Below, piece after piece: positions 10,350 to 58,614 of a stretch of 64,000 bases of DNA. Source of the stretch: Azonexus sp. (GTDB lineage Bacteria; Pseudomonadota; Gammaproteobacteria; Burkholderiales; Rhodocyclaceae); the NCBI GenBank assembly GCA_030691385.1, contig JAUYEI010000029.1, positions 1 through 64,000 of the forward strand, read 5' to 3'. Position numbers and translations under genes: made by a program. Below the pieces are notes generated by a model that was not told where the DNA came from, ran no database searches, and worked only from the letters and a program-made list of their open reading frames with translations. Position 1 is the stretch's first letter, and every line of letters begins with the position of its first letter.

Positions 10350-10387
10350 GCCACGGTCAACGGCAAAAAACGACCAAAAATCAAAAA
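10350..10387 (+). repeat. Dispersed 35-bp element, copy 1
   Basis: GCCACGGTCAACGG followed by an A-rich stretch and CCAAAAATCAAAAA. It begins 6 bp after the TetR stop codon. It belongs to a nine-copy family in this window; here one C of the usual AACCGG is missing. Confidence 0.8.
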
Positions 10388-10408
10388 GACATAAAAGGAG
10401 ACAGCAGC

Positions 10409-12763
10409 ATGTTCGACAACCTTATCCCTCTGCTCGGGGCAGTCGCCCTGGTGGCTTTGGCCGGGTTGGTTTTGATTCGGCCCTTGCGCCGAAGCATCAT
10501 CACCCGGCCCATTTTTTCCACCTACCGCAAGGTGCTGCCGCAGATGTCGGATACCGAGCGCGATGCGCTCGAAGCCGGTAGCGTCTGGTGGGAAGGCGAG
10601 CTGTTCCGCGGCGCACCGGACTGGCAGAAATTGCACGCCTACCCGCAGCCGAAACTGACGCCGGCTGAACAGTCCTTCCTCGACAACGAGTGCGAGGAAG
10701 CCTGCCGCCTGGTCGATGACTGGAAAGTGACGCACGAACTCTACGACCTGCCCAACGAAGCCTGGCGCTACATCAAGGACAAGGGCTTCCTCGGCATGAT
10801 CATTCCGAAGAAGTACGGCGGGCTCGAGTTCTCGGCCTACGCCCATTCGCAGGTGGTGACCAAGCTGTCGACGCGTTCAAGCGCACTGTCGGTCTCGGTC
10901 ATGGTGCCCAACTCGCTCGGCCCGGCCGAACTGCTGCTGCACTACGGCACCGAGGCGCAGAAAAGCCACTACCTGCCGCGTCTGGCCAAGGGCATCGAGG
11001 TGCCGGCTTTTGCGCTGACCAGCCCGTGGGCGGGTTCCGATGCGGCGTCGATTCCCGATGCCGGCATCGTCTGCAAGGGCATCTATCAGGGCAAGGAAGT
11101 GCTTGGCATGCGCGTTAGCTGGGACAAGCGCTACATCACGCTGGCCCCGGTGTGCACGGTCTTCGGCCTGGCCTTCCACCTCTATGACCCGGACGGCCTG
11201 CTCGGCGACAAGAAGCACATCGGCATCACCTGCGCGCTGGTCCCTTACGACCATCCGGGCGTCGAAACCGGTCGTCGCCACTTCCCGCTCAACGCCATGT
11301 TCATGAATGGCCCGACGCGCGGCAAGGATGTGTTCATGCCGCTCGATTTCATCATCGGCGGTCCGGAAAAGGCCGGTCACGGCTGGCGGATGCTCATGGA
11401 ATGCCTGGCCGCTGGTCGCTCCATTTCGCTGCCCTCGTCGAACACCGGCATGGCCCAGATGACGGCGCGCGCCGTCGGCGGCTATGCCCGCGTGCGCAGC
11501 CAGTTCAAGATGGCGGTCGGCAAGTTCGAGGGCGTCGAAGAGGCGCTGACCCGCATCGGCGCCTACACCTACATGATGGACGCCGTGCGCAAGATGACGG
11601 CCGGCGCCGTCGATCTCGGCGAGAAGCCGTCGGTCGTCTCGGCCATCGCCAAATACCACGTCACGGAGCGCGCCCGTCAGGTGGTCAATGACGGCATGGA
11701 CGTCATCGGCGGCAAGGGCATCTGCCTCGGCCCGTCGAACTTCATGGGTCGCGCCTACCAGCAGGTGCCGATCGGCATCACGGTCGAAGGCGCCAACATT
11801 CTGACGCGCTCGCTGATCATCTTCGGCCAGGGGGCGATCCGCTGCCATCCGTATTTGCTGCCGGAAATGCAGGCAGCGCAGAACCCGGACCACAAGCAGG
11901 GTCTGGTCGATTTTGACAAGGCGCTGTTCGGCCATATCGGCTTCACCATCAGGAACGGCTTCCGTGCCCTGTGGCTGGGGATGACCGGGTCGCACTTCGC
12001 CGGAGTCAGTGTCGATACGGCGCCGGAAATGAAGCGCTACTACCAGCAACTGACGCGTTTCTCGGCGTCCTTCGCCTTCATGGCTGACATCTCGCTGCTG
12101 GTCTTGGGCGGTAGCGTCAAACGTCGGGAAAAGCTGTCGGCCCGCCTCGGCGACATCCTCGCCCAGATGTACCTGATCTCCTGCACCCTCAAGCGTTACG
12201 AGGAAGAGGGCCGCCAGGCTGAGGACGCGCCGCTCGCCCACTGGGCGATCTGGGATGCGATGTACAAGGCGCAGGAAGCCTTTGACGGCGTGATCGCCAA
12301 CTTCCCGGTGCGCTTCATCGCCGCCTTCCTGAACCGCTCGATCTTCCCGTGGGGCCATCCGTACGTCGTGCCATCCGACGATGTCGGCCACGAGGTCGCC
12401 AAGCTGCTGATCGCCCCGTCGGCCACGCGCGACCGGCTGACCGCCGAATGTTATTTGCCGCTGGTCGAAAGCGAACCGGTGGGTGCCATCGAGCTGGCCT
12501 TGAAGGCCACGCTGCTCGCCGAGCCGATCGAGGCGAGAATCCGCGAAGCCGAAAAGGCCGGCCGTTTCGACAACAACCCGCTGGCCAATGTGCGCGACAT
12601 CGCCGTCGCCGCCTTCGAGGCCGGGGTGATTTCGGCCGCCGATTACGAAATCATGAAGGCGCGCAATCATCTGCGTGACATCGTCGTCCATGTCGATGAT
12701 TTCCCGTTCGACTACGGCGTGGCGACTGCCAACAAGCCGGCCGAATGCCGGATGGCGGCGTGA
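10409..12763 (+). CDS. fadE: FadE-type acyl-CoA dehydrogenase
   Basis: A 784-residue acyl-CoA dehydrogenase of the long FadE class (E. coli FadE is about 814 residues), catalysing the first alpha,beta-oxidation of acyl-CoA with electrons passed to ETF. An N-terminal hydrophobic helix (about 5-25) suggests membrane association. The dehydrogenase core spans about 80-480, with AFALTSPWAGSDA matching the FAD/substrate motif, and a FadE-specific C-terminal domain follows. It has AAAGGAG before the ATG and is the first enzyme gene behind the TetR regulator, probably in one operon with it or the genes after 13000. Confidence 0.93.
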   Translation: MFDNLIPLLGAVALVALAGLVLIRPLRRSIITRPIFSTYRKVLPQMSDTERDALEAGSVWWEGELFRGAPDWQKLHAYPQPKLTPAEQSFLDNECEEACRLVDDWKVTHELYDLPNEAWRYIKDKGFLGMIIPKKYGGLEFSAYAHSQVVTKLSTRSSALSVSVMVPNSLGPAELLLHYGTEAQKSHYLPRLAKGIEVPAFALTSPWAGSDAASIPDAGIVCKGIYQGKEVLGMRVSWDKRYITLAPVCTVFGLAFHLYDPDGLLGDKKHIGITCALVPYDHPGVETGRRHFPLNAMFMNGPTRGKDVFMPLDFIIGGPEKAGHGWRMLMECLAAGRSISLPSSNTGMAQMTARAVGGYARVRSQFKMAVGKFEGVEEALTRIGAYTYMMDAVRKMTAGAVDLGEKPSVVSAIAKYHVTERARQVVNDGMDVIGGKGICLGPSNFMGRAYQQVPIGITVEGANILTRSLIIFGQGAIRCHPYLLPEMQAAQNPDHKQGLVDFDKALFGHIGFTIRNGFRALWLGMTGSHFAGVSVDTAPEMKRYYQQLTRFSASFAFMADISLLVLGGSVKRREKLSARLGDILAQMYLISCTLKRYEEEGRQAEDAPLAHWAIWDAMYKAQEAFDGVIANFPVRFIAAFLNRSIFPWGHPYVVPSDDVGHEVAKLLIAPSATRDRLTAECYLPLVESEPVGAIELALKATLLAEPIEARIREAEKAGRFDNNPLANVRDIAVAAFEAGVISAADYEIMKARNHLRDIVVHVDDFPFDYGVATANKPAECRMAA

Positions 12764-12780
12764 TGCTCGGCATGCTCGGT

Positions 12781-12981
12781 TCCTCCCCCTTTATGGCCCG
12801 CAGGGCCGGTATCCCTTGGGACAAGGGGGAGGTCAGGAGGGGGATGGGTCATTCGGACGTAACCTCTGTGCCGACCCATCCCCACCCCAGCCGGAGGGCT
12901 GGCTTTGCATAGCCAGCCCGTTCAGGCGGCGCAGAGCAGTGCTCTGCGAAACCCCGCCTTCACCCCCTTGAAGGGGGGAGT
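12781..12981. repeat. Composite palindromic repeat, copy 2
   Basis: A longer version of the repeat at 1990-2081. Its left hairpin (CTCCCCCTT ... AAGGGGGAGG) has an inserted GGCCCGCAGGGCC hairpin. Its right half carries two further hairpins: GGGCTGGCT-ttgcat-AGCCAGCCC-like (12896-12919) and CGCAGAGCAGTGCTCTGCG (12930-12948), before CCCCCTTGAAGGGGGG. The right-half segment recurs nearly unchanged at 25375-25480. It fills the gap between fadE and the thiolase gene. Confidence 0.85.
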
Positions 12982-12999
12982 TTTCGGAGCTGTTTCAGA

Positions 13000-14280
13000 A
13001 TGAAACCAATCTACATTATCGACGGCGCTCGTTCGCCGTTCCTCAAAGCGCAGAAAGGGCCGGGTGTCTTCGCCGCCTCCGACCTCGCCACGCAGGCCGG
13101 CCGGGCGCTCCTGCTGCGCCAGCCCTTCGAGCCGAGCGACCTCGACGAAGTCATCCTCGGCTGCGCCGCGCCGTCGGCGGACGAAACCAACATCGGCCGC
13201 ATGGTCGCCCTGCGCCTCGGCTGCGGCAAGAAGGTGCCGGGCTGGACGGTGATGCGCAACTGCGCTTCAGGCATGCAGTCCATCGACTCGGCCATCGCCA
13301 ACATCCAGTCCGGGCGTTCCGGACTGGTGCTGGCTGGCGGCGTCGATGCGCTCTCACGGGCGCCGCTGCTTTATTCGGACGCGATGGTGCGCTGGTTCGC
13401 CGGCATGATGTCCATGCGTACGGTGAACCAGAAATTTGGCCATTTTTTGAAATTGCCGCTGGCCGAGTTGCTCAAGCCGGTCATCGGCCTCATGAAGGGG
13501 CTGACCGATCCCGTGGTCGGCCTGCTCATGGGCCAGACGGCCGAAAACCTGGCCTGGAAATTCGGCATCAACCGCCAGCAGATGGACGAATTCGCCGTCA
13601 AAAGCCATTTGAAGGCGATGTCGGCTCGCGCCGCCGGCTATTTCGGCGAGATCGTCCCGGTCGTCGATGGCCAAGGCAAGGTCTACGCCGAGGATGACGG
13701 CGTGCGGGCCGACGCCAGCATGGCCGGCATGGCCAAGCTCCAGCCGTTCTTCGACAAGAAATACGGCAACATCACGGCGGCCAACAGCTCGCAGATCACC
13801 GACGGCGCCGCCTGGCTGATCCTCGCTTCGCAAGAGGCCGTGCAGAAATGGGGCCTCAAACCCATCGGCAAGATCATCGACAGCGAATGGGCCGGCCTCG
13901 ACCCGGCGCAGATGGGCCTTGGCCCGGTGCATGCCGCGACACCGATCCTGCAACGCCACGGCCTGGGGTTGAACGACATCGATTACTGGGAACTCAACGA
14001 AGCCTTCGCAGCGCAGGTGCTCGGCTGTCAGGCGGCGTGGAAATCCGACGACTACTGCCGCGAGCAGCTCGATCTGCCCGGCGCCCTGGGTAGCCTGGAC
14101 GACGACAAACTCAACGTGGACGGCGGCGCCATCGCCATCGGCCACCCGGTCGGCGCCTCGGGGGCGCGCATCGTGCTGCATCTGCTGAATGTGTTGCGCC
14201 GGAACAAGGCGAAGCGCGGGATTGCCACGATATGCATCGGGGGCGGCCTCGGTGGCGCCATGCTGGTTGAATCGCTATGA
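13000..14280 (+). CDS. Thiolase (3-ketoacyl-CoA/acetyl-CoA acyltransferase)
   Basis: A 426-residue thiolase, the last step of beta-oxidation, cleaving 3-ketoacyl-CoA with CoA. The acyl-accepting nucleophile is Cys88 in RNCASGMQS. The later catalytic elements NEAFAAQ, GHPVGASGA and CIGGGLG are present. Its length and the insert around 130-180 (hydrophobic, LKLPLAELLKPVIGLM) are like FadI-type thiolases that associate with FadJ partners. It pairs with the hydratase/dehydrogenase gene immediately downstream, probably forming a trifunctional complex. A second thiolase lies at 20293. Confidence 0.93.
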   Translation: MKPIYIIDGARSPFLKAQKGPGVFAASDLATQAGRALLLRQPFEPSDLDEVILGCAAPSADETNIGRMVALRLGCGKKVPGWTVMRNCASGMQSIDSAIANIQSGRSGLVLAGGVDALSRAPLLYSDAMVRWFAGMMSMRTVNQKFGHFLKLPLAELLKPVIGLMKGLTDPVVGLLMGQTAENLAWKFGINRQQMDEFAVKSHLKAMSARAAGYFGEIVPVVDGQGKVYAEDDGVRADASMAGMAKLQPFFDKKYGNITAANSSQITDGAAWLILASQEAVQKWGLKPIGKIIDSEWAGLDPAQMGLGPVHAATPILQRHGLGLNDIDYWELNEAFAAQVLGCQAAWKSDDYCREQLDLPGALGSLDDDKLNVDGGAIAIGHPVGASGARIVLHLLNVLRRNKAKRGIATICIGGGLGGAMLVESL

Positions 14281-14288
14281 AAAATAAT

Positions 14289-14323
14289 TTCAATTTTGGG
14301 CATTTTTTCCGGTTGACCGTAGC
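14289..14323 (-). repeat. Dispersed 35-bp element, copy 2
   Basis: On the minus strand it reads GCTACGGTCAACCGG, an A-run, then GCCCAAAATTGAA. It starts 9 bp after the thiolase stop and ends 25 bp before the next start codon. Confidence 0.85.
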
Positions 14324-14347
14324 AATCGGCCAGCGGAAGGAAAACGC

Positions 14348-16249
14348 ATGAAACACTGGCAACTAACCAGGGAAGAAAGCGGCATCGCCATCGCCGTCTT
14401 CGACAAGGCCGGCGAATCGGCCAACTCTCTGTCGGCCGACGTCATGGCCGAATTCGGTGAAATTCTCGACCAGCTCGACAAGCAGCCGCCCAAGGGACTG
14501 ATCGTCCGTTCCGGCAAGGAAGCGGGTTTCATCGCCGGCGCCGACATCGAGGAATTCTCGCAACTCGATTCCGCCGAAAAGGGCAGGGCGCTCGTCACGC
14601 GCGGCTGGAGCCTGTTCAACCGTCTGGCCGCCGTGCCCTACCCGACGCTGGCCCTGGTCCGCGGCCACTGCCTGGGCGGCGGCCTCGAACTGGCGCTGGC
14701 TTGCCGCTACCTGCTGGCCGTCGATGAATCCGGCACCAAGATGGGCCTGCCCGAAGTCATGCTCGGCATCTTCCCGGGCTGGGGCGGCATGCTGCGGCTG
14801 CCCAAACGCGTCGGCCCGGCAGCCGCGCTCGACATGATGCTGACCGGCAAGACGCTGGATGCCAAACGCGCCAGGAAAATGGGTCTGGCCGACGATTGCG
14901 TGCCGCCGCGCGTCATGGAAATGGCCGCCCGCCAACTGCTGCTCTCCGGCCAGCCGCGCCGGCCGCTGCCCTTCATGCAAGGCCTGCTCAACGGCCCGCT
15001 CAAGTTGGTTGCCGCCAACGGTGCCCGCAAGCAGGTGGCGAAAAAAGCGCGCCCGGAACATTACCCGGCGCCCTACGCCATCATCGACCTGTGGGCCAAG
15101 CACGACGGCAACGCGCTGGCTGCGCCGGAGGTCATCGACCGCATCATCACCTCGCCGACGGCACGCAATCTGGTCCGCGTCTATCACCTGCAGGAACGGC
15201 TCAAGGGCTTCGGCAAGTCGTCTGACTTCAAGGCCAAACGCGTCCACGTCATCGGCGCCGGTGTCATGGGCGGCGACATTGCCGCCTGGTGCGCCCTGCG
15301 CGGCATGACGGTCACCCTGCAGGACCAGACGCTGGAGCGCATTTCCCCGGCCCTCAAGCGCGCCCACGCCTTGTTCACCAAGCGCCTGCGCGAACCGCTC
15401 AAGATCCGCGACGCCTTCGACCGCCTGATTCCCGATCCGAACGGCGATGGCGTCGCCCACGCCGACGTGGTCATCGAAGCCATTTTCGAAAACGTCGAGG
15501 CCAAGCACGCGCTGTTCAAGTCGCTCGAACCGAAAATGAAACCGGGTGCCGTGCTCGCCACCAACACCTCCAGCCTCAAGCTCGAAGACCTGCGCACGGT
15601 TTTGAGCAAGCCGGAACGTCTCGTCGGCATCCATTTCTTCAACCCGGTGGCGATGATGCCGCTGGTCGAGGTCGTGGAAGCCGAGGGCGCCGACCCGGCC
15701 GCCGTGCAGGCAGCCTGTGCCTTCGTGAAACAGATCGACAAGCTGCCGCTGCCGGTCAGGAGCGAGCCGGGATTCCTGGTCAACGCCGTGCTCGCGCCCT
15801 ACATGCTGGCCGCCATGCGGGCGGTCGACGAGGGCGTTTCGCCGGAAACGGTCGATGAGGCGATGCTCGCCTTCGGCATGCCGATGGGGCCGATCGAACT
15901 GGTCGATACGGTAGGTTTGGACATCGCCATGGCCGCCGGCAAGCAACTGGCCGGCGGGGCCGACGCGCCGCGCTGCCTGATCGAGCGCGTCGAGAAAAAC
16001 CTGCTCGGCAAGAAAAGCGGGCAGGGCTTCTACGACTGGTCGTCGGGCAAGGCCGCCAAGGCTGCGGCGGGCAGCGTACCGGCCGGCCTGGCCGAACGAC
16101 TGATCACCCCGTTGATCGATCGGGTCGAAAAACTGGTCGCTGACAAGACCGTTGCCGACCCGGAACTGGCCGATGCCGGCGTGATCTTCGGCACCGGGTT
16201 CGCCCCTTTCACCGGCGGCCCCATGCACTTTCGGCGAAGCATGGAATAA
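14348..16249 (+). CDS. FadJ-like enoyl-CoA hydratase/3-hydroxyacyl-CoA dehydrogenase
   Basis: A 633-residue bifunctional beta-oxidation enzyme with hydratase first. The enoyl-CoA hydratase domain (about 1-200) has the oxyanion-hole segments AGFIAGADIEEF and GHCLGGGLELALACRY with the catalytic acid near LPEVMLGIFPGWGG. The NAD-binding motif VIGAGVMGGDIA begins near residue 300, with the dehydrogenase signature GIHFFNPVAMMPLVEVV. It is shorter than E. coli FadJ/FadB (over 710). It follows the thiolase at 13000, its likely beta-subunit partner. AAGGAAAAC lies before the ATG. Confidence 0.92.
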   Translation: MKHWQLTREESGIAIAVFDKAGESANSLSADVMAEFGEILDQLDKQPPKGLIVRSGKEAGFIAGADIEEFSQLDSAEKGRALVTRGWSLFNRLAAVPYPTLALVRGHCLGGGLELALACRYLLAVDESGTKMGLPEVMLGIFPGWGGMLRLPKRVGPAAALDMMLTGKTLDAKRARKMGLADDCVPPRVMEMAARQLLLSGQPRRPLPFMQGLLNGPLKLVAANGARKQVAKKARPEHYPAPYAIIDLWAKHDGNALAAPEVIDRIITSPTARNLVRVYHLQERLKGFGKSSDFKAKRVHVIGAGVMGGDIAAWCALRGMTVTLQDQTLERISPALKRAHALFTKRLREPLKIRDAFDRLIPDPNGDGVAHADVVIEAIFENVEAKHALFKSLEPKMKPGAVLATNTSSLKLEDLRTVLSKPERLVGIHFFNPVAMMPLVEVVEAEGADPAAVQAACAFVKQIDKLPLPVRSEPGFLVNAVLAPYMLAAMRAVDEGVSPETVDEAMLAFGMPMGPIELVDTVGLDIAMAAGKQLAGGADAPRCLIERVEKNLLGKKSGQGFYDWSSGKAAKAAAGSVPAGLAERLITPLIDRVEKLVADKTVADPELADAGVIFGTGFAPFTGGPMHFRRSME

Positions 16250-16261
16250 CAGTGTCGTTTG

Positions 16262-16317
16262 TTTCAAACGATCGTTTGAAATAGTGCATTTCAAACGGCG
16301 TTTCACACGCTTGTTTG
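16262..16317. promoter_or_regulatory. Three tandem PsrA-type operators upstream of fadL
   Basis: The first site TTTCAAACGATCGTTTGAAA (16262-16281) is a perfect 20-bp palindrome. Two more follow: CAAACGGCGTTTC (16292-16304) and CACACGCTTGTTTG (16304-16317). All fit CAAAC-N3/4-GTTTG. Multiple sites directly upstream of the fadL start region imply strong repression by a TetR/PsrA-type protein, most simply the one at 9685. Confidence 0.82.
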
Positions 16318-16382
16318 AGATTTAATCGTAGCAGCAGTGACGGGAGAATTCCTCCCAACATAACAAAACAGGAGACAAATCA

Positions 16383-17657: not shown

Positions 17658-17681
17658 TTCCTGATTTGTTTGCCTGATCCA

Positions 17682-17708
17682 ATCCCCGGCCAGCCCGGGG
17701 ATTTTTTT
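17682..17708 (+). terminator. Terminator after fadL
   Basis: ATCCCCGG-ccagc-CCGGGGAT followed by seven T residues. The T-run abuts the next copy of the 35-bp element. Confidence 0.9.
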
Positions 17709-17742: not shown

Positions 17743-17758
17743 TCGCTGTTCTATAATT

Positions 17759-25374: not shown

Positions 25375-25528
25375 GCCCATCCCCACCCCGGCCGGAGGGC
25401 TGGCTTTGCATAGCCAGCCCGTTCAGGCGGCGCAGAGCAGTGCTCTGCGAAACCCCGCCTTCACCCCCTTGAAGGGGAGGGGCGATTTTCTCCTCCCCCT
25501 TCAAGGGGGAGCCGGAGGGGGGATGGGT
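25375..25528. repeat. Composite palindromic repeat, copy 3
   Basis: It shares about 100 bp with 12876-12978, including the GGGCTGGCT/AGCCAGCCC hairpin (25397-25421) and CGCAGAGCAGTGCTCTGCG (25431-25449), then continues with CCCCCTTGAAGGGG and a second outer hairpin CTCCCCCTTCAAGGGGGAG. The order of left and right arms is swapped relative to copy 2. Confidence 0.85.
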
Positions 25529-30034: not shown

Positions 30035-30922
30035 ATGGATCGCCTCGACGCCATGCATCTCTTCGTTCGGGTGGCCGAACTCGGCAGCTTCGCTGCGGTG
30101 GCGCAGCAGCTAGGCATCGCCCGCTCGGTCGTGACACGGCAGATCGCCGCGCTCGAAACGCATCTCGGCGTCAAGCTCATGGCGCGCAGCACGCGCCGCC
30201 TGGCGCTGACCTCGGGCGGTACGGCCTACCTGGAGAAATGCCGGGTCATCCTCAACCTTGTCGAAGCAGCCGAAACCGGCGTCGCCGAGGAGCGCCTGAC
30301 GCCGCGCGGCAATATCCGCATCAGCCTGCCGCTCAGTTACGGCATGAAACGGCTGGCGCCCATCCTGCTCGATTTCTCGCAACGCTACCCGGAAGTCTCG
30401 CTCGACATGGATTACAGCGACCGGCGCGTGAACCTGATCGAGGAGGGCATCGACCTGTCGATCCGCATCACCCGGCGCCTCGAATCGGGCGATGTGGCGC
30501 GCAAGATCGGCGCCAGCCGCATGCTGGTCGTCGCCGCGCCGGACTATCTCGACCGCCACGGTAGACCGGAAAAACCGGCCGAATTGGCAAACCACCTTTG
30601 TCTCGGCTACACCAACGCCGGCAGCAGCCAGCTCTGGCAATTCATGGTCGACGGGCAACTCGAAAGCTTCCATGTCCGCAGTCGCCTCAATGCCAACAAC
30701 GGCGACGTGCTGACCGAAGCGACGGCGCAGGGGCTGGGCATCAGCTGCCAGCCGGACTTCATCGCCGAAAGCTATCTGGCCAGCGGCCGGGTCGAGGAAA
30801 TCCTCACCGCCTTCCCGATGCCCGAACTCGGCATCTACGCCATGCTCCCCAGCAATCGCCATGTCCCGTACCGGGTCAGGGTCTTGATGGATACGCTGGC
30901 CGAGCGCCAGGTTTTGCCGTAA
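30035..30922 (+). CDS. LysR-family transcriptional regulator
   Basis: A 295-residue LysR regulator. The N-terminal winged helix-turn-helix covers about 1-60 (MDRLDAMHLFVRVAELGSFA, then RSVVTRQIAALE). The effector-binding domain spans about 90-290 with the usual GYTNAG and LGISCQPDFIAE segments. ATG 30035 follows CTGGAGTTGCAACA. It is divergent from the dioxygenase gene across 95 bp, the typical arrangement for a LysR protein and its target; the shared interval contains GCAA and TTGC half-sites around 30007-30031. Confidence 0.94.
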   Translation: MDRLDAMHLFVRVAELGSFAAVAQQLGIARSVVTRQIAALETHLGVKLMARSTRRLALTSGGTAYLEKCRVILNLVEAAETGVAEERLTPRGNIRISLPLSYGMKRLAPILLDFSQRYPEVSLDMDYSDRRVNLIEEGIDLSIRITRRLESGDVARKIGASRMLVVAAPDYLDRHGRPEKPAELANHLCLGYTNAGSSQLWQFMVDGQLESFHVRSRLNANNGDVLTEATAQGLGISCQPDFIAESYLASGRVEEILTAFPMPELGIYAMLPSNRHVPYRVRVLMDTLAERQVLP

Positions 30923-34742: not shown

Positions 34743-37109
34743 ATGCTGCCACCCATCGAACATCGCATTGCCGCCGAACTCGGCGTCCGCCCGGCCCAGG
34801 TCAACGCCGCCATTGCCCTGCTCGACGAAGGCGCTACCGTGCCCTTCATCTCGCGCTACCGCAAGGAAGCGACCGATGGCCTCGACGACACCCAACTGCG
34901 CAATCTCGAAGAGCGCCTGACCTACCTGCGCGACCTCGAAGAACGGCGCACCGCCATCCTGGCCAGCATCGACGAACAGGGCAAGCTGACGCCGGAACTC
35001 AAGGCCGAGATCAGCGATGCCGAAACGAAGCAGCGCCTCGAAGATCTCTACCTCCCCTACAAGCAGAAGCGCCGCACCAAGGCGCAGATCGCCCGCGAAG
35101 CCGGCATCGAGCCGCTCGCCCTCGGCCTGCTTGAGAATCCCAACCTGACACCGGAAGACGAAGCCGAGAAATATCTGAACGCCGAGGCCGGCCCTTCGGC
35201 AGAGCTCAGGACAGGCTTTGCCGATGTCCGTGCCGTGCTCGATGGCGCCCGCCAGATCCTCATGGAAAAATTCGCCGAGGATGCCGAACTGCTCGGCGGC
35301 CTGCGCGCCTACCTCAGCGAACACGGTCACGTTCGCTCCACCGTCGTCGAAGGCAAGGAAACCGAAGGCGCCAAGTTCCGCGACTGGTTCGACTTCGCCG
35401 AGCCGATAGCGACGATGCCCTCGCACCGCGCCCTGGCCCTGCTCCGCGGCCGCAACGAGGGCATGCTGTCGGTAGCGCTGGTTCTCGACTCGGAACTCGA
35501 TCCTTCGACAAGCTCAGGACAGGTCCAAGCCGTCAAACCTGGCACCCAGAACCCCTGCGAACAGCGCATCGCCGTCCGTTTCGGCATCAAGCCGCAGGGC
35601 CGCCCGGCCGACAAATGGCTGGCCGACACCGTGCGCTGGACCTGGAAGGTCAAGGTTTACACCCACCTCGAACTCGAGCTCATGAATGAGTTGCGCGAAC
35701 GTGCCGAGGAAGAAGCCATCCGCGTCTTCGGGCGTAACCTGAAAGACCTGCTGCTCGCCGCCCCGGCCGGCCAGCACGTGACCATGGGCATCGACCCCGG
35801 CATCCGCACCGGCTGCAAGATCGCCATCGTCGACGCCACCGGCAAGATGCTCGACCACGCCACCATCTATCCGCATGAGCCGCGCTGCGACTGGGATGGT
35901 GCTATCGCCACCATCGGCCGCCTGGCCGCCAGGCACCAGGTCAGCCTGGTCGCCATCGGCAACGGCACGGCCAGCCGCGAAACCGACAAGCTCGTGCAGG
36001 ACGTCATGAAGCGTTATCCGGAAGCGCGGCTGACCAAAATTGTGGTTTCCGAAGCCGGTGCCTCGGTCTATTCGGCCTCCGAATTCGCTGCCAAGGAATT
36101 CCCCGACCTCGACGTTTCGATCCGCGGTGCCGTCTCGATTGCCCGCCGCCTGCAGGACCCGCTGGCCGAGCTGGTCAAGATCGACCCCAAATCCATTGGC
36201 GTCGGCCAGTACCAGCACGACGTGTCGCAAACCAAGCTGGCGCGCAACCTCGATGCTGTCGTCGAGGACTGCGTCAATGCCGTCGGCGTCGACGTCAATA
36301 CCGCCTCGGTGCCGCTGCTCGCCCGCATTTCCGGCCTGACGGCAGGGCTGGCCGCCAACATCGTGAGCTATCGCGATGCCAACGGCGCCTTCAAAAGCCG
36401 CGATGTCCTGAAGAAAGTCCCGCGCCTCGGCGACAAGACCTTCGAGCAGGCCGCCGGCTTCCTGCGCGTGCCGAACGGCGACAACCCGCTCGACAGCTCG
36501 TCGGTGCACCCGGAAGCCTACCCGGTGGTCGAAAAAATCATTGTCGACCTCAACAAGTCGATCAAGGAAATCCTCGGCGACAGTCGCGCACTCAAGGGTT
36601 TGAACCCGGCGAAATACACCGACGAGCGCTTCGGCCTGCCGACCGTCCAGGACATCTTCAAGGAACTGGAAAAACCCGGCCGCGACCCGCGCCCCGAGTT
36701 CAAGACGGCGACCTTCGCCGACGGCGTCGAAAAGGTCGGCGACCTGCGCCCGGGCATGATCCTCGAAGGCGTCGTCACCAACGTGGCCGCCTTCGGCGCG
36801 TTCGTGGATATCGGCGTCCATCAGGATGGCCTGGTACACGTCTCGGCGCTGTCCAACACTTTCGTCAAGGATCCGCATACCGTCGTCAAGGCCGGCCAGA
36901 TCGTCAAGGTCAAGGTGCTCGAAGTGGACCTGCAGCGCCAGCGTATCGCGCTGACCATGCGCATGGGTGACGAGCCGAGCCAGGCCAAGCGCCACGACAA
37001 CGCCCCGACCGGGCGCGGCAATGCGCCCAGCCGGCCACAACCACGCAGCACCGGCCCGGCGCCGGCCGGCAACGCAATGGCTTCGGCCTTCGCCAAGCTG
37101 CGCAAGTGA
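34743..37109 (+). CDS. tex: Tex-like RNA-binding transcription accessory protein
   Basis: A 788-residue Tex protein: helical N-terminal region, YqgF/RuvC-like domain ([21 protein letters not shown] near 345), helix-hairpin-helix region (about 515-570) and a C-terminal S1 RNA-binding domain (about 665-740: [21 protein letters not shown]). It affects transcription and RNA handling. Two in-frame insertions of a short DNA repeat are visible at residues about 150-158 and 253-261. The ATG at 34743 fits the family start [10 protein letters not shown]; upstream codons are not conserved-looking. A dispersed 35-bp element follows the stop codon. Confidence 0.94.
35192..35215 (+). repeat. Short repeat inserted in tex, copy A
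   Basis: CCCTTCGGCAGAGCTCAGG then ACAGG. It adds residues PSAELRTG in frame. It is a variant of the second copy at 35501 and of a sequence (CTTCGACAGGCTCAGG type) known to be dispersed in many proteobacterial genomes. Confidence 0.75.
35501..35524 (+). repeat. Short repeat inserted in tex, copy B
   Basis: TCCTTCGACAAGCTCAGG then ACAGGT. It encodes DPSTSSGQV in frame, in a surface-like region between the helical N-terminus and the RuvC-like domain. Confidence 0.8.
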
Positions 37110-37111
37110 TT

Positions 37112-37166
37112 GCCACGGTCAACCGGGAAAAAGGGCCAAAATTGAAAAGGCGGCTGCGAAGCCGCC
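37112..37166 (+). repeat. Dispersed 35-bp element, copy 7, plus hairpin
   Basis: GCCACGGTCAACCGGG, AAAAAGGG, CCAAAATTGAAAAG (37112-37148) begins 2 bp after the tex stop. It is followed by GGCGGCT-gcga-AGCCGCC (37149-37166), a hairpin that in the sister copy at 48311 has a T-run and is a terminator; here the T-run is degraded (CTATTACTTT). The remaining 197 bp to the next gene hold nothing recognisable. Confidence 0.85.
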
Positions 37167-37363
37167 CTATTACTTTCTGGTGCTCGCTGTAGATTTGCAG
37201 CCGCGATCACTCTCGCTCCATTGCCTGCTGCCTACGTCATGAAGGCTTCTGCCGACTGCTGACCGCCGCCATCTGAGCGAATTCGGCATCAGTCGTTACT
37301 GACAATAATTTTCAGTACCTTCTCCTTTGCGGCGTTGCCAACGACCTCATCGAGAGCAATTTG

Positions 37364-47898: not shown

Positions 47899-48267
47899 AT
47901 GTCGGTTGCGATAAGAGAACAGGCGTTCGAACAGCGCCCGGGCATGATCCTCGAAGGCGTCGTCACCAACGTCGCCGCCTTCGGCGCCTTTGTCGACATC
48001 GGCGTGCACCAGGACGGCCTGGTGCACGTCTCGGCGCTCTTCAACACCCTCGTCAAGGTCAAGGTGCTCGAAGTTGACCTGCAACGCCAGCGCATCGCGC
48101 TGACCATGCGCATGGGTGACGAAGTTGACAAAAGCGGGGGCAAAGGCCGCAGCGCCGAGGCCGGCAACCAGCGTGGTGCCCCGGTCAGCCGCCAGCAAGC
48201 CCGCCGCAACGCCCCGCCGCCGGCCGGTAACGCCATGGCGAACGCCTTCGCCAAGTTGCGGAAGTAA
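47899..48267 (+). pseudogene. Partial duplicate of the tex S1-domain end
   Basis: Codons 14-122 nearly repeat the C-terminal 120 residues of Tex (compare 36747-37109), with the same ending GNAMA-x-AFAKLRK. The copy lacks 13 residues ([13 protein letters not shown]) through an exact 39-bp in-frame deletion bounded by GTCAAGG repeats, which removes part of the S1 barrel. It has no ribosome site; the first 12 codons are unrelated. It may be a relic, or a free S1-like peptide if translated through coupling with the BON gene, whose stop is one base upstream. Confidence 0.85.
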
Positions 48268-48272
48268 CCCAC

Positions 48273-48333
48273 TCCCACGGTCAACCGGAAAAAACGGCCA
48301 AAATTGAAAAGGCGGCTGCAAAGCCGCCTTTTT
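48273..48333 (+). terminator. Dispersed 35-bp element, copy 8, with terminator
   Basis: CTCCCACGGTCAACCGG, AAAAAACGG, CCAAAATTGAAAAG (48273-48310) followed by GGCGGCT-gcaa-AGCCGCC and TTTTT (48311-48333), a rho-independent terminator. The same element plus hairpin follows tex at 37112-37166, so this block was duplicated together with the tex end. Confidence 0.9.
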
Positions 48334-48478
48334 GCTGGCTGGCCCGAAGAGCGAATGATCGATGCGTGCAGATCACGCACCTCTTCGTTGAACAAATAGC
48401 GACCTGACATGTCGACTGGTTACCGGAGACACGACGTTCCGTCGCGTTTTCGCCAATCCAACCCGCGAGGAGAATCCC

Positions 48479-48814: not shown

Positions 48815-48823
48815 TCGCTTGCC

Positions 48824-52226: not shown

Positions 52227-52236
52227 ACCGGCAGCC

Positions 52237-53628
52237 TCAGAGCAGCTTGCCGGGATTCATCAGACCGCGCGGATCGAGCGCCTGCTTGAGCGAACGCATG
52301 AGCGCCATCTCGACCTCGCTCTTGTAGCGCCGGATTTCCTCACGCTTCAACTGGCCGATGCCATGCTCGGCCGAAATCGAGCCGTTCAGCGCATGCACCG
52401 TGTCATGAACAAGGTGATGCACCTCGGGCTCGCTGGCGAGGAAGGCTTCGTTGTCGTGGGCATCGGCCTTCGACAGGTTGTAATGCAGGTTGCCATCGCC
52501 AACATGGCCGAAAGCGACCACGCGGATGCCGGGGAAAGCCCTGGCCAGCACCGCATCGGCCGTCGCCAGGAACTCCGGGATACCCGATACCGGCACCGAA
52601 ACGTCATGCTTGATGCTGATGCCCTCGATTTTCTGTGCCTCGGAAATGTTTTCGCGCAACGCCCACAGCTTTTTCGCCTGCGTTTCCGATTGCGCGACGA
52701 CGCCGTCGCTGACCTCGGCCGCTGCCAGACGGTCGGCCAGCCAGGCTTCGACGGCGGCCGGATCGGCCTCCGAGAGCTCGGCCAGCACGTACCAAGCTGA
52801 GCTGGCACTTGGCCGGACGGTAGCGGGGATGTTCTTGAGGACCAGTTCGAGGGCCGTTTCCGAAACCAGCTCGAAGGCCGTCAGTTGGGCGTCGAAACCG
52901 GTTTTGGCCGAATTCAGCAGGTCGACAGCAGCAGCCGGCGAAACGACATTGAGCCAGCAGGTAACCTGCCTTTTGGGCAGCGGAAAGAGCTTGAGCACGG
53001 CGCCGGTGATGATGCCCAGCGTGCCCTCGGCGCCGATGAACAACTGCTTGAGATCGTAGCCGGTGTTGTCCTTGCGCAGGCCGCGCAGGCCGTTCCAGAT
53101 GTCGCCATTGGCGAGAACCACTTCCAGACCCAGCGTCAGTTCACGCATGTTGCCGTAGCGCAGCACCTGCACGCCGCCGGCATTGGTCGACAGATTGCCG
53201 CCGATCTGGCACGTCCCTTCCGACGCCAGCGCCAGCGGAAACAGCCGGTCGGCGGCGCGCGCCGCGTCCTGGACGGCAGCCAGCGTGCAGCCGGCCTCTA
53301 CTGAAATCGTGCTGTTTTTCCGGTCGACCGTGAGAATGCGATTCAGGCGGCTCAGACTGACGACCACCGCCCCACCCGAGTCGTCCGGCGTTGCCGCGCC
53401 GCACAGGCTGGTGTTGCCACCCTGCGGCACGATGGCCACGCCGGCCGCGACGCAGGCCTTGACGATGGCCGCCACCTCGGCGGTGTTGCCGGGGCGGACG
53501 ACGCACTGGGCTGCACCACGGTAGCGGCCGCGCCAGTCGGTGACGAAGGGCGTAATGTCGGCCGGCTCGGTCAGCACCTGGGCCGCGCCGACGAGGGCGG
53601 TGAGTTGATCGATCAAGGAATCAGTCAT
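52237..53628 (-). CDS. FAD-linked oxidase/2-hydroxyacid dehydrogenase (GlcD-like)
   Basis: A 463-residue vanillyl-alcohol-oxidase-fold flavoprotein. The PP-loop FAD-binding region is PQGGNTSLCGAATPD, with NLSTNAGGVQVLRYGNMREL and NTGYDLKQLFIGAEGTLGII; the C-terminal FAD-oxidase domain has HVGDGNLHYN and SISAEHGIG. Members oxidise D-lactate, D-2-hydroxyglutarate or glycolate; the substrate is not determined by sequence. ATG 53628 is used. It lies 7 bp from the patatin gene on the same strand. Confidence 0.92.
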   Translation of the reverse strand: MTDSLIDQLTALVGAAQVLTEPADITPFVTDWRGRYRGAAQCVVRPGNTAEVAAIVKACVAAGVAIVPQGGNTSLCGAATPDDSGGAVVVSLSRLNRILTVDRKNSTISVEAGCTLAAVQDAARAADRLFPLALASEGTCQIGGNLSTNAGGVQVLRYGNMRELTLGLEVVLANGDIWNGLRGLRKDNTGYDLKQLFIGAEGTLGIITGAVLKLFPLPKRQVTCWLNVVSPAAAVDLLNSAKTGFDAQLTAFELVSETALELVLKNIPATVRPSASSAWYVLAELSEADPAAVEAWLADRLAAAEVSDGVVAQSETQAKKLWALRENISEAQKIEGISIKHDVSVPVSGIPEFLATADAVLARAFPGIRVVAFGHVGDGNLHYNLSKADAHDNEAFLASEPEVHHLVHDTVHALNGSISAEHGIGQLKREEIRRYKSEVEMALMRSLKQALDPRGLMNPGKLL

Positions 53629-53635
53629 TGCGTTT

Positions 53636-54502: not shown

Positions 54503-54508
54503 GACAGA

Positions 54509-55840
54509 TCAGCCCGGCCCGACCGGCTGGGCGTAGAGATCGTGGTGATCGGCGTCGATGACCTTGACCATCAGGAAGTCACCCGGCTCGGCATCGAAAT
54601 GGCCATCGATGTAAACCACACCGTCGATTTCCGGCGCATCAGCCTTGGAGCGGGCAATCGTGCCCTCTTCATCAACCGCATCGACCAACACCTGGATGAC
54701 CGTGTCGATCTTGGCTTCGAGCTTGGCGGCGGAAATGTCTTCCTGCACCTGCATGAGCCAGCGCCGACGGTCTTCGCGCACGTCCTCGGGCGGCAGACCG
54801 GCGAGTTCGTTGGCCTTGGCGCCTTCGACCGGCGAGTAGGCAAAGGCACCGACACGATCCAGTTTCGCGTCTTCCAGGAACTGGATCAGCTGGTCGAAAT
54901 CCTCATCAGTCTCACCCGGGAAGCCGGTGATGAAGGTCGAGCGGATGACGATTTCCGGGCAGATCTCGCGCCACTTGGCGATGCGCTCCAGCGTGTTCTC
55001 GGCCGAAGCCGGACGTTTCATCGCTTTCAAAATGGTCGGGCTGGCGTGCTGAAAAGGCACGTCGAGGTAAGGCAGGATCTTGCCCTCGGCCATCAGCGGG
55101 ATGACATCGTCGACCGACGGGTACGGATAAACGTAATGCAGGCGGACCCAGATGCCGAAGCTGGCCAGCGCCTCGCACAGCTCCTTCAGGCGCGACTTGA
55201 CCGGCTTGCCGCCCCAGAAGGCGGTGCGGTACTTGAGGTCGACGCCGTAGGCGCTGGTGTCCTGCGAAATGACCAGGATTTCCTTGACCCCGGCGCGGGC
55301 CAGGTTTTCGGCTTCGGCCAGCACGTCGCCGACCGGCCGCGAGACGAGCGGGCCGCGTAGCGAGGGGATGATGCAGAAGGTACAGCTATGGTTGCAGCCT
55401 TCGGAAATCTTCAGGTAGGCAAAGTGGTCCGGCGTCAGGCGGACGCCCTGCGGCGGCACGAGGTCGGAATACGGGTCGTGCGGTTTCGGCAGGTGGGCAT
55501 GGACGTAGCCCATGACCTCGTCGGCGGCATGCGGGCCGGTCACGGCCAGCACGGCCGGGTGCGTCGATTGCACGATGTCGCCCTTGGCGCCAAGACAGCC
55601 GGTGACGATGACCTTGCCATTCTCGTTGAGCGCCTCGCCGATGGCGTCGAGCGACTCTTCAACAGCGGCATCGATGAAGCCGCAGGTATTGACGATGACG
55701 AGATCGGAATTGTCGTAGCTCGGCGAAATCTCGTAGCCTTCGGCGCGCAGCTTGGTCAGGATGCGCTCGGCATCGGAACTGGCTTTCGGACAGCCCAGGG
55801 AAACGAAGCCGACGGTCGGCACTTTTTGCTGAATACTCAT
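54509..55840 (-). CDS. rimO: Ribosomal protein S12 methylthiotransferase RimO
   Basis: A 443-residue radical-SAM enzyme that methylthiolates an aspartate of ribosomal protein S12. The N-terminal UPF0004 cluster cysteines are Cys17, Cys53 and Cys82; the radical SAM CxxxCxxC is Cys149, Cys153 and Cys156 (CNHSCTFC); a C-terminal TRAM domain covers about 370-443. The full domain set and length match the family. Confidence 0.96.
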
Positions 55841-55897
55841 GCGATGGAAACCTTATCCGGACTGGCCGGCAATCAAAGGGCGTATTTTACGGGGGAA

Positions 55898-57271
55898 TCA
55901 GTTTGGCAGGCGGGCAAGTGCCTGTTTCAGCGCGTCAAAACATTTCGCGTCGATGGCCGTGCCGACATTCTCGGCCATGATTTCGAGCGTTTTGGGAATC
56001 GGCACAGCACCGCGATAAGGGCGTTCGGCGGTGATCGCATCGAAAATATCGGCCGTCGTGATGATCCGCGTTTCGAGGCAGATTTCCTTGGCAGTGACGC
56101 CGCGCGGGTAGCCCTTGCCGTCGAAGCGCTCGTGATGGGCGGCCGACACTTGCGCCAGTTCGCCAAAGGCGTCGATACGCGAGAGGATGGTCTCGGTATA
56201 CATCGCATGCGCCTTGACCGCCTCCCACTCTTCATCATCCAGCTTGCCGGGCTTGTCGAGCACGCTGTTGCTGACGCCGAGCTTGCCGACATCGTGGAGC
56301 AGCGCGCCACGCTTGAGCCAGCGCCGACGGTCCGCCGCCAGACCGAGCGTTTCGGCGATCAGGTCGGCGTAGAGCGCAACCCGCGTGCTGTGCCCGCTGG
56401 TGTAGGGGCTTTTCGAGTCGACAACCTGACCGAAGGCGGCCGCGATGTCGTCGAGATAATCGTCGTCGAGCGCCACAACATGTCCGGCCGGCTCGAGCGC
56501 CAGAACCGCCGTAATGACGTCGGGCGAAGCCAGTATTTTCCAGAATGCGTCGTCCCCCTCCAGTTGCTCGAATGCTGTTACCAGCGCGGGATCGAACCAG
56601 CCGCCAACGCGCCGCCGAACCTCGTCAAAAGCCGCCTGCGGTCCACCGGAGGTATGAAAAACATCAATGACCTGAGCCAGCAGCGCAATGCGCGAATAGA
56701 GCGGAATGGCCTTGCCAGCCAGCCCATGCGGCTTGCCCTGACCGTTGAAATGCTCGTCCAGACTGTAGATGCCGGCCGACACGCTCTCGGGGAAACGCAG
56801 CAGGCGGGCGATTTCGGCACCCCGCTGGCAGCGGGTGGCGATCAACTCGGTGGCGATCTGTTCGCCATCGCGCATGATCGTCATGACGTTGCGGAAACGC
56901 TCGGCCAGCGGCGCCCTCAGGCCGGTATGGCCGAGCACGAACTGGAGCACCCGGGGCAGGCTGTCGCCGACCTTCTTGAAATCGCGTTTGAAGCTCAGGT
57001 CGTCGGTCAGGTACAACTCGCAGATGCGCGCGGCGTTGCTGCTGCAACCGAGATCCTTGAGCAGCAAGGTGTAGTAGAGATTCCACAGATCGTCGTCGCC
57101 AAGCCCGATACGGCGGCCGATGTGCATGCCGATCCAGCAACAACGCACGCAGTGGCCTTCTGGCTGACCTTCTGTAATGTCGAGCGCGTGACTGAGCGCC
57201 GAGATCAATTCGGAGAGCTTCAAGCCAGCCAGGGCGGGCAAGGTAAATTGAACAGGAGAATTTGCAGGCAT
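55898..57271 (-). CDS. HD-GYP domain phosphodiesterase with degenerate first HD domain
   Basis: A 457-residue protein with two HD-type domains. The C-terminal HD-GYP domain (about 275-450) has intact HDVGKLG and HHERFDGKGYPRG, the c-di-GMP phosphodiesterase signature. The N-terminal one (about 25-190) has lost the HD pair (LLKDLGCSSNAARI) and has HFNGQGKPHG in place of GYP. ATG 57271 gives MPANSPVQF; an earlier start is possible. No sensor domain is evident, so it is probably cytoplasmic. Confidence 0.9.
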   Translation of the reverse strand: MPANSPVQFTLPALAGLKLSELISALSHALDITEGQPEGHCVRCCWIGMHIGRRIGLGDDDLWNLYYTLLLKDLGCSSNAARICELYLTDDLSFKRDFKKVGDSLPRVLQFVLGHTGLRAPLAERFRNVMTIMRDGEQIATELIATRCQRGAEIARLLRFPESVSAGIYSLDEHFNGQGKPHGLAGKAIPLYSRIALLAQVIDVFHTSGGPQAAFDEVRRRVGGWFDPALVTAFEQLEGDDAFWKILASPDVITAVLALEPAGHVVALDDDYLDDIAAAFGQVVDSKSPYTSGHSTRVALYADLIAETLGLAADRRRWLKRGALLHDVGKLGVSNSVLDKPGKLDDEEWEAVKAHAMYTETILSRIDAFGELAQVSAAHHERFDGKGYPRGVTAKEICLETRIITTADIFDAITAERPYRGAVPIPKTLEIMAENVGTAIDAKCFDALKQALARLPN

Positions 57272-57403
57272 CGGCTCGTAGATTACCAACAATCAACGTT
57301 TTTCTCTCGCTTCATGATGAGATCAGAACGGCGGGCTCGAGCACAATAACAGCCTGAACGACCACGAAAATTTGCCCCGAAACAATCACCATCATTCAGA
57401 ACT

Positions 57404-57432
57404 CTGACGCAAAATACTTTATTCGTTATAAT
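57404..57432 (+). promoter_or_regulatory. Promoter of tRNA-Val(TAC)
   Basis: CTGACG (57404-57409) and TATAAT (57427-57432) with 17 bp spacing form a near-consensus sigma70 promoter ten bases before the tRNA. The -10 box is a perfect consensus. Confidence 0.7.
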
Positions 57433-57442
57433 ACCCGCCCCA

Positions 57443-57518
57443 GCGTTCTTAGCTCAGTTGGTAGAGCGTCTGCCTTACACGCAGAATGTCGGCGGTTCGA
57501 GCCCGTCAGGACGCACCA
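57443..57518 (+). tRNA. tRNA-Val (anticodon TAC)
   Basis: Acceptor GCGTTCT/AGGACGC with A-CCA, D-arm GCTCAGTTGGTAGAGC, anticodon stem-loop TCTGC-CTTACAC-GCAGA (anticodon TAC) and T-arm GGCGG-TTCGAGC-CCGTC. It decodes GUA/GUG (and perhaps other Val codons). Confidence 0.96.
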
Positions 57519-57905
57519 ATTTGATACATGTCTGGGCACTCCAATATTGGGATTCCCTTGGCGCCATCCAGAGATGGCGCCAGCCATATCGACATTACTT
57601 CCTTTCATGCTTCCTTCCGAGGAACCAATGCGAACTTCCGATACGATGGTTCGGAGATAGCTTTTCGCGTACTTGCTGCCAGGGGCCAGTATTTCACTCC
57701 GAATGGCAGTTGCAAATCCTTCTCTATCGCCCTCAATTGCAGTTCCGAAAATCCTGCCTCTGCAATAACGGGTTTCGTTTTTTGATATTCAGGTGCAATC
57801 ACCCTGAGCCAAACGGCCTAATATTTCCAAGGGCTTGCACCACCATGTTGTCATATTCCATGCGTATATTTCCTGATTCGCGCCATCAAGGGGGCAGGGG
57901 AAAGC
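57519..57905. other. Lower-GC intergenic region with a strong hairpin
   Basis: After the tRNA comes a perfect 10-bp stem, TGGCGCCATC-caga-GATGGCGCCA (57559-57582), perhaps a terminator or processing signal without a T-run. The rest has visibly lower GC than its neighbours and contains a possible broken gene on the minus strand (57605-57861). It looks like foreign or decayed DNA. Confidence 0.6.
57605..57861 (-). pseudogene. Possible small foreign gene, broken into two frames
   Basis: On the minus strand a 20-codon frame starts at 57861 (MEYDNMVVQALGN...) behind AGGAAATATACGC and ends in TGA that overlaps a GTG (57802) opening a 65-codon frame (VIAPEYQKTKPVIAEAGF, ending at 57605). The second peptide has normal-looking amino acid composition. 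One frameshift could have split an originally continuous protein. Family not recognised. Confidence 0.3.
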
Positions 57906-58544
57906 ATGCGCCACACAGGTTGGACAATCACTCAAACCATTCACGAGATTGATCGATTTTTTGTTGAGTGCAGACGAGTTTCTCCGTCATTACCGTTTCT
58001 GACCATCTTGTGCATCCTTGCCGTTGTGCTAGTGACGCCCGGTCAATCATGGGCAGCGGCGAGCCCCTACCTCTCACCTGCAACCAGTGCCACTCAATGG
58101 CTCTCTGGTCATCAAAATGGTGATGGCAGTTGGGGAAGTCGATCAGACGTCAAGCTGGTATATACGGCTGAAGCGGTACAAGCAATGGCTGCCGCCAATG
58201 AGCGTGGAGCAGCCTATTGGCGCGGCATCGCCTGGCTACAGAATCAGGCTGTCGGCAACATCGATCACGCGTCGAGGAGAATCCTGGCCCTTGCTTCCCA
58301 CGGCGACAATTTAGCCGATGACCTTGCCTACCTTCAGCAGGTGCAGAATTTGACGGCGCCGGCAACGGGGGCTTGGGGACTGACGGAAATGTATGAAAGC
58401 GGGGCTCTTGACACGGCTTTGGCCTATACCGCCTTCGGGGAAACCCTGGCAACGACCGGGACGCCGGTGGGAAGACTGAAATATACCGGGCGGGAGGCGG
58501 AGCCGTCCGCGAGCAAAAAACCGGGACAGACCACGAATAAATAG
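57906..58544 (+). CDS. Secreted alpha-toroid protein fused to an RHS core tail
   Basis: A 212-residue chimera. A membrane anchor or signal segment lies near 28-51 (LPFLTILCILAVVLVTPG then QSWA). Residues about 55-170 resemble an alpha/alpha toroid repeat (WLSGHQNGDGSWGSRSD, YWRGIAWLQNQA) as in N-terminal parts of some RHS-type proteins. At about residue 170 the frame enters LAYTAFGETLATTGTPVG, a copy of the RHS core end found at 59925 in the next gene. The junction DNA is nearly identical over about 75 bp. It probably arose by deletion within a larger toroid-RHS gene. Confidence 0.65.
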   Translation: MRHTGWTITQTIHEIDRFFVECRRVSPSLPFLTILCILAVVLVTPGQSWAAASPYLSPATSATQWLSGHQNGDGSWGSRSDVKLVYTAEAVQAMAAANERGAAYWRGIAWLQNQAVGNIDHASRRILALASHGDNLADDLAYLQQVQNLTAPATGAWGLTEMYESGALDTALAYTAFGETLATTGTPVGRLKYTGREAEPSASKKPGQTTNK

Positions 58545-58580
58545 CCATCGACATCAACGCCCCAAACCGACCGTGCCGAT

Positions 58581-58614
58581 TTCAATTTTGACCAAAATTT
58601 CCGGTTGACCGTAG
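58581..58614 (-). repeat. Dispersed 35-bp element, copy 9
   Basis: On the minus strand GCTACGGTCAACCGG, AAATTTTGG, TCAAAATTGAA. It lies 37 bp after the chimeric gene stop and overlaps the apparent 5' end of the RHS fragment. Confidence 0.85.

What the first reader, a model, noticed from the sequence alone, without database searches (positions are those of the whole stretch)
10350..58614. A nine-copy ~35-bp dispersed element placed at gene ends
The core CCACGGTCAACCGG, an A- or T-rich centre, and CCAAAATTGAAA occur at 10350, 14289, 17708, 21617, 29129, 32016, 37112, 48273 and 58581, in both orientations and with different degrees of divergence. Each copy lies within about 50 bp of a stop codon. 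The half CGGTCAACCG is itself a short inverted repeat. Such density (one per about 7 kb) argues for a genome-wide element with a function in 3' ends, RNA processing or chromosome organisation, or for a non-autonomous mobile repeat.
Basis: seen in the sequence. Interest (0 to 1): 0.78.

Follow-up and report, generated by a model that had tools for sequence, protein, structure and literature searches.

The report
Candidate DNA-uptake tag in Dechloromonas relatives
A 38-letter DNA word scattered hundreds of times through the genomes of a group of water bacteria looks like the tags that some competent bacteria use to recognise and import DNA of their own kind, a trait so far described in only two other bacterial families.

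Summary
The repeat is real and genome-wide: 380 exact copies of its 11-bp core against 18 of the backwards control, and 87 copies in 464 kb where reversed DNA gives one hit of 1.0 bit. Consensus TnCCACGGTCAACCGGAAAWWWnGGCCAAAAWTGAAAT: a GC core followed by A/T tracts 11 bp apart. Intergenic copies do cluster after stop codons, but 42-46% lie inside called genes, in all six frames. It is not a mobile repeat: coding copies align with homologues without an insertion. Orientation is even, replication polarity absent, no fold conserved. Eleven species of one Azonexaceae (Dechloromonas-like) genus are rich in it; four further species carry altered dialects; 393 genomes of other genera in the order show none above background. 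The layout matches Pasteurellaceae uptake signal sequences. comEC is intact; the nearest element-poor relative has a frameshifted comEC, and a 33-kb element inside comEC of an element-rich species holds no copy. Best reading: a self-recognition sequence for natural transformation in a third family (0.78). Uptake was not tested and the receptor is unknown.

The parts
10349..10386 (+). element copy, 4 bp after a stop codon; orthologous place shared by element-rich relatives
   Evidence: 44.4 bits
13416..13453 (+). weak element-like copy inside a gene (13000-14280)
   Evidence: 10.6 bits
14287..14324 (-). element copy between two + genes, opposite orientation
   Evidence: 64.4 bits
17704..17741 (-). 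element copy with T-rich second segment
   Evidence: 41.1 bits
21617..21654 (+). near-consensus element copy
   Evidence: 67.8 bits
29128..29165 (+). diverged copy over the 3' end of a - strand gene
   Evidence: 31.5 bits
30554..30591 (+). coding copy in a LysR-type regulator gene (30035-30922); peptide aligns with solved homologues without a gap
   Evidence: 27.1 bits
32015..32052 (+). element copy, AAATTT second segment
   Evidence: 55.3 bits
37111..37148 (+). element copy between a stop codon and a GC-rich inverted repeat
   Evidence: 59.7 bits
48273..48310 (+). near-consensus copy between a stop codon and a GC-rich inverted repeat
   Evidence: 65.7 bits
53298..53335 (-). weaker coding copy (gene 52237-53628)
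   Evidence: 18.5 bits
58579..58616 (-). element copy
   Evidence: 58.7 bits

Best explanation
The element is a DNA uptake (self-recognition) sequence for natural transformation in a clade of Azonexaceae. Shown: its anatomy, abundance, even orientation, origin by point substitution in coding DNA and in at least one intergenic site, clade-limited spread with dialects, and an intact comEC with type IV pilins in the genome. Inferred: a surface DNA receptor, probably a minor pilin of the transformation pilus, prefers the core plus the phased A/T tracts; fragments that carry it are imported and recombined more often, and this bias (molecular drive) builds up copies wherever they do little harm, above all just after stop codons and, with a weaker consensus, inside genes.
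For: 380 cores against 18 control. Core plus A/T segments 11 bp apart, as in USS, with Apl segment 3 AAAATTTTGCAAAT against AAAATTGAAAT here (PMC1626085 passages). Copies with A/T tracts: 48 with a perfect core, 22 with one mismatch, 8 with two. Even orientation and no polarity: 44 leading, 38 lagging, p 0.58. In coding DNA in all six frames (26 copies). No insertion at 9 of 9 coding copies with an element-poor homologue nor in 5 PDB alignments that span a copy. Dialects. comEC intact, frameshifted in the nearest element-poor species. No copy in a 33-kb insert (P about 0.001).
Against: No uptake assay. Density is one copy in about 5-6 kb, not about one per kb as in classic cases. Raw core counts do not by themselves show a strong consensus: 49 perfect against 60 singly mismatched, of which 44 are expected from reversed DNA. 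Spacing is regular in the own genome and one arm of G068 but not in the other. Most element-poor congeners also have comEC, so comEC does not explain the distribution. FimT, the pilin tested, does not track the motif. ComEA, DprA and PilQ were not searched. At the 14287 slot two element-poor relatives have no spacer, so substitution is not shown there.
Confidence: 0.78

Rival explanations
1. Binding site of an abundant intracellular protein that organises, segregates or protects the chromosome (nucleoid-associated, SlmA-, MatP- or Noc-like), kept by selection at hundreds of places.
For: Origin by substitution, dialects and clade limits would also fit coevolution of a DNA-binding protein with its sites.
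Against: No strand polarity. Selection would have to hold some 600 sites of 38 bp, many inside genes; the core-plus-two-A/T-tract layout is that of USS.
Confidence: 0.13
2. A 3'-end, terminator or RNA-processing element.
For: Intergenic copies cluster within 50 bp of stop codons (27 of 44 and 30 of 44); window copies 37111 and 48273 sit between a stop and a GC-rich hairpin sequence.
Against: Both orientations equally common in tandem gaps. No conserved pairing with compensatory change; the only Rfam matches in the window are three tRNAs. Copies inside genes on either strand.
Confidence: 0.05
3. A non-autonomous mobile repeat (MITE- or REP-like).
For: Sharp edges and a strong consensus over about 38 bp; at the 14287 slot the spacer is missing in two element-poor relatives.
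Against: 9 of 9 coding copies have no insertion against element-poor homologues, 5 of 5 spanning PDB alignments none of about 13 residues. An intergenic slot aligns base for base with element-poor species.
Confidence: 0.02

Closest known systems
Pasteurellaceae uptake signal sequences (USS), Hin and Apl types
   Same: Short GC core with a CGGT(C) element, followed on one side by two A/T segments about one helical turn apart; both orientations; preference for non-coding DNA with many coding copies; origin by substitution; subclade types (PMC1626085, passages and section 7).
   Different: Core ACGGTCAACCGG instead of AAGTGCGGT or ACAAGCGGT; G+C-rich betaproteobacterial host; one copy in about 5-6 kb; uptake not shown.
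Neisseriaceae DNA uptake sequences (DUS)
   Same: Betaproteobacterial lineage by older taxonomy (recalled), hundreds of copies, several dialects within a family (PMC3630211 passages).
   Different: DUS is a 10-12-mer around GCCGTCTGAA without flanking A/T motifs and shares no core with this element.
REP/MITE-type dispersed repeats (recalled)
   Same: Hundreds of short, often extragenic copies.
   Different: No insertion signature, frequent coding copies, no palindromic fold.
KOPS, SlmA or Noc-type chromosome motifs (recalled)
   Same: Genome-wide short protein-binding words.
   Different: Much longer motif; no polarity as for KOPS; no protein known.

Membership tests
DNA uptake sequences (USS/DUS kind) | Competent cells take up DNA with the motif in preference | not testable with these tools
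   needs an uptake assay
DNA uptake sequences (USS/DUS kind) | Strong over-representation in the genome | tested here: met
   380 against 18 control
[quoted passage not shown]
   48 against 22 among copies with A/T tracts; raw 49 against 60 with 44 expected from reversed DNA
DNA uptake sequences (USS/DUS kind) | Arises by substitution, not insertion | tested here: met
   9 of 9 testable coding copies out of 59; 5 spanning PDB alignments out of 8 queries
DNA uptake sequences (USS/DUS kind) | No orientation bias; enriched in non-coding DNA with many coding copies | tested here: met
DNA uptake sequences (USS/DUS kind) | More regular spacing than random | tested here: inconclusive
   P 0.006 in the own genome; 0.024 and 0.72 in two arms of G068
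DNA uptake sequences (USS/DUS kind) | Transformation machinery present | tested here: inconclusive
   comEC and 16 prepilin-type matches found; other genes not searched
DNA uptake sequences (USS/DUS kind) | About one copy per kb (typical, not defining; H. ducreyi has 199 cores in 1.76 Mb) | tested here: not met
   one per 5-6 kb
Pasteurellaceae USS (as one family) | Core with ANNNGCGGT | tested here: not met
   consensus ACGGTCAACCGG; the G034 dialect has GCGGTC at 6 of 8 fetched loci, but not the full core
MITE/REP mobile repeat | Insertion relative to homologues without it | tested here: not met
KOPS-like polar chromosome motif | Strand switches with replication direction | tested here: not met
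   23+/14- at GC skew +0.033, 24+/21- at skew -0.046

The most novel reading that the evidence does not exclude
A third, independent origin of sequence-specific DNA uptake, in environmental Azonexaceae, with at least three dialects in one genus, that has converged on the core-plus-phased-A/T-tract layout of the Pasteurellaceae USS. This would suggest that DNA shape or bending, not only base contacts, is what uptake receptors select.
Probability: 0.62. Interest if true: 0.88.

Novelty: new variant of a known kind. Interest (0 to 1): 0.77.

Why it matters
A 2020 paper on H. influenzae still names two families, Pasteurellaceae and Neisseriaceae, with strong uptake preferences (PMC7811141, passages). 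A third gives an independent replicate for the old question of why uptake specificity evolves and whether motif build-up is selected or a by-product. One genus of 76 held species that ranges from none to over 450 core copies offers gain, change of dialect and loss on one tree. It also predicts that a named strain, Dechloromonas sp. Dech2017, prefers its own dialect, which would help the genetics of these water and sludge bacteria.

Tried and rejected
Mobile repeat: contradicted by the gap tests. RNA element: no fold, no Rfam match but tRNAs, no orientation. KOPS-like polarity: none. FimT as the receptor: the own FimT-like pilin is 80% identical to that of the dialect genome G034 but only 26-48%, over part of its length, to the best matches in the ten element-rich sisters. 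The covariance-model search of the own genome scored only 150 candidates, so counts rest on patterns and on my own weight matrix. That matrix was trained on loci L001-L110, some of which are the same places as in the test stretches. PDB searches without an alignment over the element. One scan of viral contigs gave one matching contig, not followed. Literature, held library only: no paper holds Rhodocyclaceae, Betaproteobacteria and 'DNA uptake sequence' together; none Azonexaceae with natural transformation; one unrelated listing for Dechloromonas with natural competence; CGGTCAACCGG as text gave three papers, by title unrelated; searches listed nothing on uptake sequences in this family by title and abstract. 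The D. aromatica paper was seen in passages, the ComN paper in abstract and outline. A look for the MAG name DEC001 in PMC8630035 found nothing.
Full report
Observation. The nine copies are real and at the stated coordinates. The window lies in contig C118 of a 3.45-Mb genome in 129 contigs; the 11-bp core CGGTCAACCGG occurs 209 times on one strand and 171 on the other, the pattern read backwards 7 and 11 times. A 38-column weight matrix was trained on 116 copies from loci L001-L110, some of which are the same places as in the test stretches. In 464 kb (window plus 20 stretches of 20 kb) it gives 87 hits of 8 bits or more and 76 of 20 or more; the reversed sequence gives one positive hit, of 1.0 bit. 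So there is about one copy in 5-6 kb.

Anatomy. In 164 distinct aligned copies from the own genome and relatives (chosen by an exact core, so the core columns are invariant by selection) conservation runs over about 38 positions: a T at -4, CCA, CGGTCAACCGG, AAA plus three A/T positions, a GC block (nGGCC), AAAAWT, S, AAAT. Outside these edges conservation drops. The two A/T segments begin 11 bp apart. RNAalifold pairs three columns without any compensatory change, and the only Rfam matches in the window are three tRNAs. A pattern of the 3' third alone, GSCCAAAAWTSAAAT, finds 89 copies in the own genome and no backwards control in any of 76 genus genomes, so the A/T part belongs to the element as much as the core.

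Consensus strength. In the 464 kb there are 49 perfect cores and 60 with one mismatch; reversed DNA gives 1 and 44. Among those followed by A/T tracts (13 of 16 positions or more) the numbers are 48 perfect, 22 with one mismatch and 8 with two. A consensus this strong is noted as anomalous for regulatory sites and typical of uptake sequences (PMC1626085 passages).

Where copies lie. With a gene caller of my own, 44 of 76 copies in the own genome are intergenic and 32 coding; in 400 kb of a second, closed genome (G068) 44 and 38 of 82. Copies are 7.4 and 5.3 times denser in intergenic DNA. Intergenic copies favour stop codons: 27 of 44 and 30 of 44 within 50 bp, against 26% and 18% of random intergenic points; starts are near chance (15 and 11 of 44, random 29% and 20%). 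In tandem gaps 14 point with the genes and 14 against, in G068 14 and 13. Strands in G068 do not follow the replication skew: 44 leading, 38 lagging, p 0.58. Coding copies use all six frames (26 copies of 24 bits or more) and keep the core with weaker A/T segments. Spacing is more regular than random in the own genome (P 0.006) and in one G068 arm (P 0.024), not in the other (P 0.72).

Not an insertion. Inserted copies in genes should show a gap of about 13 residues against homologues that lack the element, the test used for Haemophilus USS (PMC1626085 section 7). Of 59 coding copies in held sequence of element-rich species, 9 had a homologue in held sequence of element-poor congeners; all 9 align without a gap at the element in at least one homologue, and none of 31 pairs has 10 or more gap residues. 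One example at 93% identity reads AFTVNRKKPRILIL with the element and AFAMPRKKPRLLVL without. Against solved structures, GatA, aminopeptidase N, a MurU-like nucleotidyltransferase, a LysR regulator and an F-box-only-protein-22-like protein show gaps of at most two residues there; three further queries gave no alignment over the element. Between window genes 9685-10344 and 10409-12763, the element-poor G035 and G005 align over all 38 bases of the window copy with 26 and 29 matches. Of 29 intergenic copies compared (about six gene pairs by my reading), 20 have at least 30 of 38 bases aligned in some element-poor genome. Against: at the 14287 slot two element-poor relatives have no spacer and others carry an extra 950 bp, so that slot does not show substitution.

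Who has it. Among 120 genomes (own and relatives) the exact core is at 158-476 copies in ten genomes of the genus, intermediate in G034 (97), G017 (73) and G005 (53), and at 0-42 elsewhere. The broad pattern CGGTCNNSNNNAAAWWWNNSNCAAA over 76 genus genomes gives 86-374 hits in eleven (G000, G122, G043, G003, G068, G002, G012, G052, G053, G055, G062), 124-163 in G034, G029, G069 and G123, and 0-38 in the other 61; the control gives 4 hits in all. By a conserved window protein the ten element-rich sisters are the nearest kin of the own genome, 89-95% identical, followed by the element-poor G035 at 88%. Outside the genus 393 genomes of the order give 6 hits against 11 control hits.

Dialects. At 22 loci of G029, G069 and G123 found through segment 3, no core reads GGTCAA, 16 read GGTCGG and 16 have AATGCTA upstream. 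At 8 such loci of G034, 6 read GCGGTC, none ACGGTC, and 2 show no core. Because the loci were found through segment 3, its constancy is partly by selection. The parallel is with the Hin and Apl types of USS and the eight neisserial dialects (PMC3630211 passages).

Machinery. ComEC is found in 71 of 76 genus genomes and is intact in the own genome with DUF4131, Competence and Lactamase_B domains. The own comEC carries a copy of the element, and G002 has one at the same place. Sixteen prepilin-type matches are present, with a cluster that holds a FimT-like pilin, a PilV and others. The nearest element-poor species, G035, has comEC split over two frames. The element-rich G002 has comEC interrupted by about 33 kb with a large serine recombinase and a tyrosine integrase; the insert holds no element where about seven are expected (P about 0.001). 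Most element-poor congeners also have comEC, so that gene alone does not explain the distribution. The FimT-like pilin does not track the motif.

Mechanism. Best supported is a self-recognition sequence for natural transformation. Shown: abundance, layout, substitution origin, strong consensus in copies with A/T tracts, even orientation, dialects, comEC. Inferred: a receptor at the pilus binds the core and senses the A/T tracts; preferred fragments recombine and carry the motif along, so that it accumulates where it does least harm. The gene-end preference then reflects tolerance, not a 3'-end function. I give this 0.78 and the chief rival, an intracellular chromosome-binding protein, 0.13.

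Novelty. Uptake sequences were stated to be known from two families in 2006 (PMC1626085 passages) and again in 2020 (PMC7811141 passages). My searches of the held library found no report for this family; most subscription papers and preprints are not held. It works like a USS; by core sequence it is not a member of the Pasteurellaceae USS; membership in the wider kind awaits an uptake assay.

Noticed in passing
L297 + L298 (G002:C33, about 109.6-143.3 kb) and L299 + L300 (G044:C1, about 2218.7-2251.2 kb): comEC is interrupted after its N-terminal part by about 33 kb with a large serine recombinase, a tyrosine integrase and further genes; the two inserts share stretches at 80-92% identity. It looks like an integrative element that targets comEC and would switch off transformation. 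G019 has comEC split over two contigs.
   Followed up: partly
L302 (G035 comEC): comEC of the nearest element-poor species lies in two overlapping open frames (547 and 512 codons), as after a frameshift.
   Followed up: partly
L301 4140-4177 (G000 comEC) and L297 1137-1174 (G002): comEC itself carries a copy of the element at the same place in two species.
   Followed up: no
L226 and L227 (FimT-like loci of G000 and G034): The FimT-like minor pilin of G000 is 80% identical to that of distant G034 but 26-48% to the best matches in its sisters, as if the pilin locus had been exchanged.
   Followed up: no
window 36729-37180 and 47917-48342: Two gene ends about 11.2 kb apart share stretches at 79-96% identity, each followed by an element copy and a similar GC-rich hairpin sequence.
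   Followed up: no
window 58420-58501 and 59920-60001: 82-nt repeat at 89% identity 1.5 kb apart, with a peptide that recalls YD/Rhs repeats (recalled, not tested).
   Followed up: no
window 12875-12976 and 25376-25477: Two 102-nt copies at 99% identity 12.5 kb apart, just upstream of genes; not the uptake element.
   Followed up: no
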